A stretch of DNA of 64,000 nucleotides from Sulfuriferula multivorans. Its GTDB lineage: Bacteria; Pseudomonadota; Gammaproteobacteria; Burkholderiales; Sulfuriferulaceae. The first letter of the stretch is position 1; every line of letters starts with the position of its first letter. The stretch is taken from assembly GCF_003851125.1 (NCBI RefSeq), contig NZ_BGOW01000013.1, positions 1 to 64,000 on the forward strand. The letters are read 5' to 3'. A model generated the notes under the pieces. The model was not told where the DNA came from. It was given only the letters and a program-made list of their open reading frames with translations, and ran no database searches. Both the position numbers and the translations under genes were made by a program. Shown here one piece after another: positions 1 through 2,005 of this stretch.

Positions 1-498
1 GGTCAGTGCTATGGCAGCCGCCGCCTGGTGCATGCGTTGCAGGCGCAGGGCATGACCATGGGTCGGCACCAGGTGAGCAGCCTGATGCGTGAAGCGAACA
101 TCCGTCCGGTCTGGAAACCCAAGTTCGTCGCCACTACCGATAGCAAACACGACATGCCGGTGGCCGGAAATGGGTTGAATCGTCAATTTGAAGTGGCCGC
201 GCCGAATCAGGCGTGGGTGTCTGACATGACCTATATCCGCACCCGCTCAGGATGGCTGTATTTGGCGGTCGTACTGGATTTATATGCGCGCAAAGTGGTG
301 GGTTGGGCAACCGCCCCTACCATGCCCACCGCGCTGGTGGTCGCCGCATTGACCATGGCGCTGCAACAGCGGCGTCCAGATGCTGGCCTGTTGCTGCATT
401 CAGATCGGGGGAGTCAGTATGCCAGCCGGGAATATCAGACTTTGCTGGCCCAAAACGGTATTCGATGCAGCATGAGCCGCAAGGGCAACTGCTGGGAT
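1..498 (+). pseudogene. IS3-family transposase orfB, 5' part, interrupted
   Basis: The frame is open from base 1, so the true start lies outside the window. It encodes the RNase H-like (DDE, rve) integrase core of an IS3-family OrfB: a 'YGSRR' segment typical of the N-terminal region, then 'WVSDMTYI' with the first catalytic Asp, 'LHSDRGSQYAS' with the second, and 'MSRKGNCWD' just before the catalytic Glu helix. The frame is broken right after GNCWD; the rest of the gene resumes at 1787 after an IS110-family insertion. The two halves together would make a near full-length OrfB C-terminal domain. The protein is certainly inactive as it stands. Confidence 0.9.
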
Positions 499-509
499 AC
501 TCAATCTAT

Positions 510-680
510 GATTGTCAAGAACGCCTGCCAAATCTGACCCATGCTGGGATTGGCCAGTTGCCTTTGCATTGACCTGTCGATTTGATCAAAGCGTTCCCCG
601 AGCGTTGCCGGGCCCAATGCGTGTGACCTAATAGGAGCTTTGTATTGCACCGTGAGTGTCCTGTCCGGCAAGTGGGATTG
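510..680 (+). ncRNA. Candidate IS110 bridge RNA
   Basis: IS110-family elements make a bridge RNA from the non-coding end; its two internal loops pair with target and donor DNA. Target loop: stem caaatc 529-534 with gatttg 579-584, enclosing tgctgggat (542-550), identical to the nine bases left of the insertion (490-498). A small ggc/gcc hairpin (552-562) follows, then gcattgac (566-573), the reverse complement of the right junction 1784-1791. Donor loop: stem ttgccgg 605-611 with ccggcaa 665-671, enclosing ataggagc (631-638), identical to the element's right end 1776-1783. In the same loop tgagtgtc (653-660) pairs with the left junction 496-503 with one G-T wobble. All four guides are in the order expected. 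RNA ends are approximate and no promoter was assigned. Confidence 0.72.
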
Positions 681-712
681 GTGATGCACCTACCTTGGAT
701 AAGGAGTGCGAA

Positions 713-1774
713 ATGGACGATCAATTAATACAAAACGAAGTGATTCTGGGTGTTGATACGCATTTGGATATGCACGTTGCCGCAGTCATTAGCCATGCGG
801 GCAAGCTTCTTGGAACACTTGCGACACCAACTAACACCGCTGGCTATCTGAAGCTACTGGCCTGGGCGCGCTCATGGGGTTGCGTACGGCGTGCAGGTGT
901 TGAAGGTACCGGCACGTATGGGGCAGGCCTTGCTCGCGTTTTACGCGGGCAAGGCATTGAGGTGCTGGAAGTGAATCGCCCTGACCGTGCTAAACGCAGA
1001 TTGCAAGGCAAGTCCGACCCGACTGATGCTGAGAATGCGGCACGCTCAGTTCTTTCTGGCACCGCGACGGCTGTTCCAAAGTCCCAGTCCGGCGCCGCAG
1101 AGGCTATGCGCACTATTTCCGTTGCCAGGCGAAGCGCAGTCAAGGCCAAGACGCAAACAATCAATCAGTTGAGAGCTCTATTGGTCAGTGCCCCACAAGA
1201 CATCCGTGAACGACTCTGGAAAGCCAAACCTGAGCAATGCGTTGCAGGATGCGCTCATCTTCGACACCTGGGTTCAACGACGCTCTTACAGACGTTAGCC
1301 ACAACGCTACGCTTGTTGGCAAAGCGCTGGTTAATGCTGGCGGCGGAGTTGAAAGAGATTGATACTGCATTAGAGCAGATGACAAGCCAGTCTGCGCCAC
1401 ACCTTCGGGAGCAGTTTGGCGTCGGGCCTCAAACCGCTGCCGCATTGATCGCTGTCGCCGGAGATAATCCGGAACGATTACACAGCGAGGCAGCACTTGC
1501 CACACTCTGTGGTGTAAGCCCTTTACAAGCCTCGTCAGGAAAAACGATACGGCATCGATTAAACCGAGGCGGTGACCGATCAGCCAACAATGCGTTGTGG
1601 ACCATTGCCATGGTTCGAATGAGAAGCGAGCCACGAACCCGCGCTTATGTTGAACGCCGAACAGCAGAAGGCCTGTCCAACAAGGAAATCCATCGCTGCT
1701 TGAAACGATACATCGTCAGAGAGCTCTATCCATTCATCCTCGCGGATTTGGTGGCCGCAGCAAACGTTTCTTGA
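713..1774 (+). CDS. IS110-family DEDD recombinase/transposase
   Basis: 353 residues. The ATG at 713 is preceded by a strong site (aaggag at 701-706), so I prefer it to upstream starts. The N-terminal RuvC-like DEDD domain shows 'GVDTHLDMHVAAV' (first Asp), 'VEGTGTYGAGLA' (Glu) and 'KSDPTDAENAA' (Asp pair). The C-terminal Transposase_20 domain has a helix-hairpin-helix-like 'FGVGPQTAAALIAVAG' and 'GVSPLQASSGK', with the serine-bearing segment used by IS110 enzymes. The gene appears intact and could be active. It acts with the RNA encoded just upstream to recombine the circular element with a guide-matched target. Confidence 0.93.
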   Translation: MDDQLIQNEVILGVDTHLDMHVAAVISHAGKLLGTLATPTNTAGYLKLLAWARSWGCVRRAGVEGTGTYGAGLARVLRGQGIEVLEVNRPDRAKRRLQGKSDPTDAENAARSVLSGTATAVPKSQSGAAEAMRTISVARRSAVKAKTQTINQLRALLVSAPQDIRERLWKAKPEQCVAGCAHLRHLGSTTLLQTLATTLRLLAKRWLMLAAELKEIDTALEQMTSQSAPHLREQFGVGPQTAAALIAVAGDNPERLHSEAALATLCGVSPLQASSGKTIRHRLNRGGDRSANNALWTIAMVRMRSEPRTRAYVERRTAEGLSNKEIHRCLKRYIVRELYPFILADLVAAANVS

Positions 1775-1786
1775 CATAGGAGCGTC

Positions 1787-2005
1787 AATGCGGTGATGGA
1801 GCGTTTCTTCCTGAATTTGAAGATGGAGCGTGTGTGGCAACGCGACTATGCCAATTTCGATGAGGCCAAACACGACATTACCGATTACATCGTTGGCTTC
1901 TACAATTGCACCCGGCTGCATTCAACACTGGGCTATCTGTCTCCCGCCGCCTTCGAGCGCAAAATGGCAGTAAAACAACCTATCGCTGTGTCTGAAAATA
2001 CTTGA
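1787..2005 (+). pseudogene. IS3-family transposase orfB, 3' part
   Basis: Reading from aat-gcg-gtg-atg-gag the product is N-A-V-M-E-R-F-F, which continues the GNCWD end of the upstream fragment exactly in phase (D-N-A-V-M-E is the conserved block holding the catalytic Glu). It ends with the usual OrfB tail 'RLHSTLGYLSPAAFE', then a TGA stop. It has no start or ribosome-binding site of its own. The IS3 element probably ends within about 10 bases after the stop, but its terminal inverted repeat cannot be verified because the left end is outside the window. Confidence 0.9.

What the first reader, a model, noticed from the sequence alone, without database searches (positions are those of the whole stretch)
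499..712. A readable bridge RNA with matching target and donor guides in an IS110-family element
The non-coding left end of the IS110 element has two stem-bounded loops. The first (529-584) holds a nine-base copy of the left target flank (542-550 = 490-498) and an eight-base reverse complement of the right junction (566-573 against 1784-1791). The second (605-671) holds an eight-base copy of the element's right end (631-638 = 1776-1783) and a near-complement of the left junction (653-660 against 496-503). All four guides are in the order established for IS621-type bridge RNAs, which implies this insertion was guided into a conserved IS3 catalytic motif.
Basis: partly seen in the sequence, partly recalled or inferred. 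Interest (0 to 1): 0.75.

Follow-up and report, generated by a model that had tools for sequence, protein, structure and literature searches.

The report
RNA-guided transposon inside an IS3 transposase
A jumping gene here carries an RNA sequence whose guide segments match the exact spot in another jumping gene's enzyme where it landed, and relatives carry guides matched to their own landing spots, mostly in the same or other transposase genes.

Summary
All four guide matches are at the stated coordinates, and 0 of 20,000 random left ends gave three of the four. The window element (499-1786, recombinase CDS 713-1774) is an IS110-family insertion in the CWD|NA codons of an IS3 orfB, between the second catalytic Asp and the Glu. 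Of 58 relatives with a readable left end, 52 have IS3 sequence on at least one side by phmmer, 54 by eye. Guides co-vary with targets: left guide 428 of 456 Watson-Crick pairs, permuted mean 409, 0 of 10,000. Both loop stems show compensatory changes. Joining the ends creates a TTGACA-18-TATGAT promoter. The closest known system is ISEc21 (43% identical protein), whose guide RNA and IS3 target at the second catalytic Asp are published (PMC11187229). New here: another IS3 codon; more distant relatives whose guides match IS3, IS5-type, IS630 and TnpB genes; and donor and target cores that differ (T8C9 versus A8Y9), each right guide being complementary at position 8 to the other DNA, like the IS621 'handshake' one position inward. 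No transcript or movement was tested.

The parts
1..498 (+). Interrupted IS3-family orfB, left part; reads up to ...GNCWD (Asp codon 496-498). Target positions 1-9 are 490-498
   Evidence: Pfam rve 102.3 bits and HTH_21 41.1 bits; junction comparison
499..1786 (+). IS110-family element, ends from comparison of relatives: left end begins ACTCA (donor positions 10-14, 499-503), right end finishes AGGAGCGTC (donor positions 1-9, 1778-1786)
   Evidence: single copy in own genome
507..512 (+). -10 box TATGAT of the predicted circle-junction promoter
521..594 (+). Target-binding loop closed by stems 521-538 / 576-594
   Evidence: 13 pairs in helices 1-3, 8 with changes on both sides; window positions
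542..550 (+). Left target guide (LTG), pairs with the bottom strand of target positions 1-9; base 550 (U) reads GAT directly and GAC by wobble
566..571 (+). Right target guide (RTG), pairs with target positions 14 to 9
572..573 (+). Handshake guide of the target loop: A572 pairs donor T8 (not target A8), C573 pairs G7
   Evidence: sequence; same at position 8 in 15 of 15 more distant relatives scored; concept from PMC11208158
596..612 (+). Short linker hairpin (596-598 / 610-612)
   Evidence: helix 4: 3 pairs, 2 with a change on both sides, one sequence each; weak
614..675 (+). Donor-binding loop closed by stem 614-620 / 668-675
   Evidence: helix 5: 6 pairs, 5 with changes on both sides
631..638 (+). 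Left donor guide (LDG), copy of the right end 1776-1783
653..660 (+). Right donor guide (RDG) plus handshake: pairs donor 14 to 9 (653-658), then target A8, G7 (659-660)
   Evidence: fully paired with the left junction, wobble included, in 52 of 57 loci; 3 have one mismatch, 2 were not scored
713..1774 (+). IS110 recombinase, 353 aa; DEDD residues D15, E64, D102, D105 and Tnp serine S275 by alignment to IS621
   Evidence: Pfam PF01548, PF02371; PDB match 8wt6; positions; the equivalence of residues is read by eye from the alignment
1771..1776 (+). -35 box TTGACA of the circle-junction promoter
   Evidence: TTGACA in 51 of 52 loci
1787..2005 (+). Interrupted IS3 orfB, right part, starts NAVMERFF (target positions 10-14 are 1787-1791; catalytic Glu codon 1799-1801)
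   Evidence: Pfam rve_2 above its cut-off, rve_3 just below, on 1793-2002

Best explanation
This is an IS110-family insertion sequence of the ISEc21 type. When its ends join in the circular form they build a promoter (inferred) that transcribes the left end as a bridge RNA and then the recombinase. One RNA loop recognises 14 bases of IS3 orfB, TGCTGGGAY|AAYGC, which encode Cys-Trp-Asp-Asn-Ala just before the catalytic Glu; the other recognises the element's joined ends. The recombinase cuts after position 9 and joins the element between the Asp and Asn codons, which separates the two catalytic Asp codons from the Glu codon and so should inactivate the IS3 copy. The insertion position and the guide-target matching are shown by sequence; transcription, RNA binding and strand exchange are inferred from ISEc21 and IS621.
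For: Four guide matches, three or more together in 0 of 20,000 random left ends. IS3 sequence at the same codon in 52 of 58 relatives by phmmer, 54 by eye. Guide-target co-variation: target positions 1-8, 428 of 456 against permuted 409.3, 0 of 10,000 as high; positions 11-14, 164 of 204 against 149.9, 2 of 10,000; position 15 pairs in only 13 of 51 (Watson-Crick), as a 14-base footprint predicts. Changes of guide with target in L029, L047, L034, L082, L083, L087. Compensatory stems. Junction promoter with at most 2 mismatches in 45 of 52 against 1.1% of shuffles. Homology to IS621 and ISEc21, whose RNAs are experimental.
Against: No transcript data. Single-sequence folding is not better than shuffles (z 0.38). 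No Rfam match. Only one copy in its genome, none in 17 other genomes of the genus, so recent movement is not shown. 4 of 58 relatives lie outside IS3 by both counts (L006, L007, L012, L016; the right flank of L012 is missing); L007 matches its guide poorly, and on the right side L006 and L016 match only 2 and 3 of 5 positions. Mismatches inside the target are common at some positions: left position 3 in 16 of 57; right positions 12, 13, 14 in 6, 6 and 7 of 51. Permutations ignore relatedness.
Confidence: 0.93

Rival explanations
1. The recombinase recognises IS3 DNA by protein contacts; the target-like words in the left end are decoys or relics of past junctions and guide nothing.
For: Most guides and targets are nearly constant, so constancy alone cannot separate RNA from protein recognition. 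No RNA was seen here.
Against: Guide and target change together in L029/L047, L034, L082/L083/L087, and in 16 more distant elements with several different targets the positional guide matches 123 of 144 bases against 70.0 permuted, 0 of 10,000. The stems that hold the guides show compensatory changes. ISEc21 needs its non-coding region and RNA (section 12 read).
Confidence: 0.03
2. One ancient insertion was carried along inside IS3 elements; the shared position reflects common descent, not repeated targeting.
For: Nearly all are at the same codon; relatives are mostly Proteobacteria.
Against: The flanking orfB sequences differ widely between loci (right halves such as NAVMERFF, NAPTESLW, NACSESLF, NSPMERFF, NALAETIN). 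L006 and L016 have only a guide-length match on the left side, outside IS3. Sister elements L108 and L110 (100/99 support) sit in IS5-type and IS3 genes. Element and IS3 trees were not compared.
Confidence: 0.03
3. A shared identical core dinucleotide (CA, or YA) is exchanged as in IS621, rather than unlike cores.
For: Left junctions read YA and right junctions CA across the cut in most loci when the frame is moved by one base.
Against: In that frame the ISEc21-type loci have target YC opposite donor CA, and the junctions keep them apart; the right guide matches up to position 14 and not 15, and the left guide covers nine bases, which fits the 14-base site of IS621 in the A8Y9/T8C9 frame.
Confidence: 0.2

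Closest known systems
ISEc21 (IS110 family, E. coli; seekRNA) - PMC11187229, sections 4, 12, 13, 14 and passages seen
   Same: Left-end non-coding RNA region; target inside an IS3-family transposase at a catalytic codon; circle junction with promoter; recombinase 43% identical over 344 aa. Its junctions, read from L085, show the same A8Y9/T8C9 pattern.
   Different: ISEc21 targets HSD|QG (second catalytic Asp); the window element targets CWD|NA, 3' of it. The seekRNA of ISEc21 was isolated and reprogrammed; here there is only sequence.
IS621 bridge RNA system - PMC11208160 (passages), PMC11208158 (sections 8 and 12 and passages)
   Same: Two loops with target and donor guides, pairing with a 14-base target, top-strand cut after position 9 and handshake guides are described for IS621; the guide anatomy here fits this frame.
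   Different: IS621 has CT at positions 8-9 of both donor and target. Here donor TC, target AC or AT, and position 8 of each right guide pairs only with the partner DNA. IS621 targets REP elements.
ISMch6 (relative of ISEc21 with a changed target; PMC11187229)
   Same: Natural redirection by changed guide bases.
   Different: One such IS110-type example is named there; here several within one clade and between transposase families.
IS4321/IS5075 (IS1111 group; IS4321 target mentioned in PMC11187229, details recalled)
   Same: IS110/IS1111 elements that use another mobile element as target.
   Different: They target terminal inverted repeats of transposons (recalled), not catalytic codons; the RNA region of the IS1111 group lies downstream of the gene.

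Membership tests
IS110 family (IS110 group) | DEDD RuvC-like domain plus Transposase_20 domain with serine | tested here: met
   PF01548 79.1 bits, PF02371 71.4 bits; D15, E64, D102, D105, S275 by eye on the alignment with 8wt6
IS110 family (IS110 group) | Long non-coding left end, short right end, no target duplication | tested here: met
   499-712 before the CDS, 12 bases after it; junctions of relatives. Sub-terminal repeats and a true empty site in this genome were not tested
IS621-type bridge RNA | Two internal loops with LTG, RTG, LDG, RDG in this order and strand sense | tested here: met
IS621-type bridge RNA | Identical core dinucleotide (CT) in donor and target | tested here: not met
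   Positions 8-9: left junctions AC 36, AT 20, TC 1 of 57; right junctions TC 52 of 52. Depends on the frame (see third rival)
IS621-type bridge RNA | Non-coding RNA bound by the recombinase | not testable with these tools
   no RNA data
ISEc21-type IS110 | Related recombinase and a target at conserved catalytic-domain codons of IS3 orfB | tested here: met
   43% identity; L085 sits at HSD|QG, window at CWD|NA
ISEc21-type IS110 | RNA required for movement | not testable with these tools
   shown for ISEc21 only
Rfam families | Match to a curated RNA family | tested here: not met
   0 matches

The most novel reading that the evidence does not exclude
A large IS110 clade uses bridge RNAs as a homing device against rival mobile elements: its guides are written against conserved, often catalytic, codons of IS3 (at two codon sites, with C-W-D, C-F-D, S-Y-D and H-S-D versions), IS5-type, IS630 and TnpB genes, and switch between these families by guide changes. 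The clade recombines donor and target with unlike cores (T8C9 and A8Y9); each right guide is complementary at position 8 to the partner DNA only, so that the full duplex forms only after strand exchange.
Probability: 0.6. Interest if true: 0.75.

Novelty: new variant of a known kind. Interest (0 to 1): 0.62.

Why it matters
It turns a single hand-read match into a natural experiment on guide reprogramming: one recombinase clade, several target genes or motifs, and guides that follow them. It suggests that a coding motif which a transposon cannot change without losing activity is a safe address for a parasite of transposons. It also gives a sequence-level test of the handshake model at a core position that differs between donor and target, which could widen the target rule for bridge-RNA tools beyond a shared CT core.

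Tried and rejected
Rfam search of the window and of 480-760: nothing. DNA-level search of plasmids with megablast: nothing. Other copies in the own genome: none; the only other piece of the host IS3 found with 1-498 is 94 bases at the start of another contig, so no empty site in the same genome. Single-sequence folding was uninformative (z 0.38). L069 looked like an abutted circle junction, but the sequence after the first bases is not a left end, so it was not used. Viral contigs gave one partial locus. A phylum sample of 398 genomes with the L096 protein at E 1e-40 gave matches in three, one of them the window's own. Core frame YA/CA was considered and set aside (see rivals).

Rows dropped before counting: 30 of 88 loci lacked one clean left end under the pattern used (fragments, contig ends, more divergent left ends); L031 was dropped from the tests as a near copy of L008, but is in the counts of 58; L015 and L076 were left out of the RNA alignment because their left ends are interrupted or the element is deleted, and their RDG was not scored. 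In the Fisher test of guide position 3, L007, L009, L029, L047 and L052 were left out. The class 'IS3 at this codon' was made by eye (54 of 58); phmmer with the two window halves finds 49 of 58 left flanks, 42 of 52 right flanks, 52 of 58 on either side, and misses L047 and L060, which I count by motif. In the tree the label IS3_CWDN was given by default to all rows not otherwise named, including rows whose junctions were seen on one side only. L097, L103, L106 and L107 were not in the guide test; L103 has a guide-like match by eye but interrupts an open frame that did not look like a transposase. In one search the positional rule took the first of two guide-like segments in L098 and L099 (5 and 7 of 9) and was off by one base in L096 (4 of 9); they are in the count as they fell. 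In one search the left guide was the best-matching 9-mer, so only its right-guide results are used.

Full report
What is there. The window begins inside an IS3-family orfB (Pfam rve). At base 498 the reading frame is broken by a 1,288-base element, 499-1786, that encodes a 353-residue IS110-family recombinase (PF01548 and PF02371; the two solved relatives found are IS621 8wt6 and ISCro4 9t56). The orfB frame resumes at 1787. The break lies between the Asp and Asn codons of CWD|NAVME, so the two catalytic Asp codons are left of it and the catalytic Glu codon (1799-1801) is right of it (the roles of these residues are recalled knowledge of IS3). The element is alone in its genome and absent from 17 other genomes of the genus. 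A second, different IS110-type gene lies on contig C26.

The four guide matches are real. One search prints them. In 20,000 random left ends of the same first-order composition, no case had three of the four. The left target guide (542-550) equals target positions 1-9; the right target guide (566-571) is complementary to target positions 14-9, with a G.T wobble at 9 if the target was GAT; the left donor guide (631-638) is a copy of 1776-1783; the right donor guide (653-658) is complementary to donor positions 14-9.

Relatives. The search for related loci found 94 relatives in genome contigs, kept the best 80 and gave 78 distinct loci; nine further loci came from viral contigs, plasmids and E. 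coli. Of 88 loci held then, the window's own copy included, 58 had one clean left end under my pattern and 30 did not. In 54 of the 58 the flanks read by eye as IS3 orfB in the frame C-W-D|N (S-Y-D|N in L029 and L047) on at least one side; phmmer with the window's two halves confirms 52 (left 49 of 58, right 42 of 52), missing L047 and L060. L009 and L052 show IS3 on the right side only. L006, L007, L012 and L016 show it on neither side, though the right flank of L012 is missing. L006, L012 and L016 still have TGCTGGGA at the left junction; on the right L006 and L016 match the guide at only 2 and 3 of 5 positions (read). L007 matches poorly on the left too. So the guide-length match on the left can occur without the IS3 context.

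Guides follow targets. After removal of the near copy L031, 57 loci give 428 of 456 Watson-Crick pairs at target positions 1-8 against a permuted mean of 409.3 (0 of 10,000 as high); 51 loci give 164 of 204 at positions 11-14 against 149.9 (2 of 10,000); position 15 is unmatched (13 of 51). These permutations do not allow for relatedness. Clear cases: L029 and L047 (AGTTACGA, AGCTACGA, in both guide and target), L034 (target ACTC, guide A at position 13), L082, L083, L087 (target ACAG, guide T at position 13). At guide position 3, U goes with target T in 5 of 5, C with T in 14 of 47 (Fisher p 0.0045, 52 loci). At position 9, the third base of the Asp codon, the guide is U in 52 of 57 and so reads GAT directly and GAC by wobble. 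Misfits are not rare: position 3 is mismatched in 16 of 57, positions 12, 13 and 14 in 6, 6 and 7 of 51; position 12 alone shows only weak co-variation (438 of 10,000 permutations as high).

RNA structure. An alignment of 55 left ends gives a consensus with 34 pairs, 16 with compensatory changes. For the 22 pairs of the main stems, 94.1% of cells pair, 15 pairs change on both sides, covariation score 0.372 against 0.235 in shuffles (0 of 500) and at most 0.102 when slid. The target guides lie inside the first loop and the donor guides inside the second. Against this, the window sequence alone folds no better than its shuffles, and no Rfam family matches.

Expression. Joining right and left end gives TTGACA, 18 bases, TATGAT. 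Over 52 loci TTGACA is present in 51, and 45 have at most two mismatches in the twelve positions with a spacer of 16-18, against 1.1% of shuffles. That a promoter forms at the joined ends is published for ISEc21 and for earlier IS110/IS1111 elements. Transcription here is inferred.

Position 8 and the handshake. IS621 cuts after position 9 of a 14-base site and has CT at 8-9 in both DNAs; bases 81-82 and 166-167 of its RNA pair with positions 6-7 of the other DNA after exchange. In the window clade left junctions read A8-C9 (36), A8-T9 (20) or T8-C9 (1) of 57, and right junctions T8-C9 in 52 of 52. So, in this frame, donor core TC and target core AY differ, and each junction keeps the bases of the strand that IS621 calls the top strand. 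The right target guide has A opposite position 8, which pairs donor T8 and not target A8; the right donor guide has U there, which pairs target A8. The right donor guide pairs along the whole left junction, wobble included, in 52 of 57; 3 have one mismatch and 2 were not scored. In 15 of 15 more distant elements scored the same position-8 rule holds for the target loop, and its position 7 pairs the donor base in 13 of 15 but the element's own target in 8 of 15 (Watson-Crick). This looks like the IS621 handshake moved one base inward. It is an inference from sequence; the cut site was not mapped, and the donor core is read from right junctions, not from a sequenced circle.

Beyond the clade. 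I fetched 18 more relatives from plasmid records (one of them, L104, proved to be of the window type), besides ISEc21 itself. They are a hand-picked spread, not a survey. With the guide taken by position after TGACYCN (or close variants), 16 loci match 123 of 144 bases of their own left flank against 70.0 when flanks are permuted (0 of 10,000). The interrupted genes: IS3 at HSD|QG for L085 (ISEc21), L099-L101, and L098, where the left flank shows only HSD beside other sequence; IS3 at CWD for L096 (left side only); IS3 at CFD|NA for the Streptomyces element L110 (rve 54.5 bits); IS630 at CDN for L102, L112, L113, L115 (right sides YATH in three, LSAH in L113; DDE_3 above cut-off for the right half of L102, below it for L112; L113 annotated IS630); IS5-type at RYD for L108, L109, L114 (DDE_Tnp_1_2 below cut-off for L108 and L114; L108 annotated IS5); TnpB for L111, just before IVIEDL (OrfB_IS605 55.2 and Cas12f1-like_TNB 57 bits). 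That is 15 of the 16, those without a Pfam score or annotation by eye; the gene at L095 was not identified. L103, outside this set, interrupts a frame that does not look like a transposase, so the habit is not universal. In the tree the window clade is one side of a branch (57 rows, 100/99), and L108 (IS5-type) and L110 (IS3) are sisters at 100/99, which implies a change of target family between close relatives.

What is known. Siddiquee et al. 2024 (PMC11187229; sections 4, 12, 13, 14 and passages seen) showed for ISEc21 the left-end RNA, its target in IS3 at the second catalytic Asp, reprogramming, and natural redirection in ISMch6. Durrant et al. (PMC11208160; passages only) and Hiraizumi et al. 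(PMC11208158; sections 8 and 12 and passages) give the bridge RNA and handshake. The window protein is 43% identical to ISEc21's. So the kind is known; the codon, the breadth of transposase targets and the unlike cores are what I did not find in the searches made (mostly listings; open-licence papers only; supplements not opened). Siddiquee's target survey of over 300 elements may contain members of this clade.

Verdict. The element is a relative of ISEc21 with another address in the same victim gene family, and the wider set points to a clade that often uses transposase genes as its address.

Noticed in passing
L082 (E. coli plasmid NZ_CP010123.1), 1-984: One IS3 copy carries two IS110 elements: an ISEc21 (98.5% identical over 275 aa) at the HSD codons and a window-type element at the CWD codons.
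   Followed up: partly
L098 and L099, left ends: Two successive LTG-like segments (TGACTCAAACACTGATCG and a second one) precede a single RTG; possibly a duplicated target loop with two guides.
   Followed up: partly
L013, L017, L045, L047, about 90 bases upstream of the left junction: A different insertion sequence end (GTGTTGCGACGACC...) lies at or near the HSD codons of the same IS3 gene.
   Followed up: no
L009 and L052, left flanks: Left flank is not IS3 but resembles the element's own right end (ATAGGAGGAC, ATAGGACGTGGTC), as if recombination used a donor-like site; may be chance.
   Followed up: no
G000 contig C26, 15262-15684 (L094): A second, different IS110-type recombinase gene in the window's own genome.
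   Followed up: no
L111 (Streptomyces globisporus plasmid): An IS110 relative inserted in a tnpB gene (TnpB proteins are known RNA-guided nucleases, recalled) just before its IVIEDL motif, with matching guide.
   Followed up: partly
L015: About 1.7 kb separates the first part of the left end from the rest and the recombinase gene; the non-coding RNA region seems interrupted.
   Followed up: no
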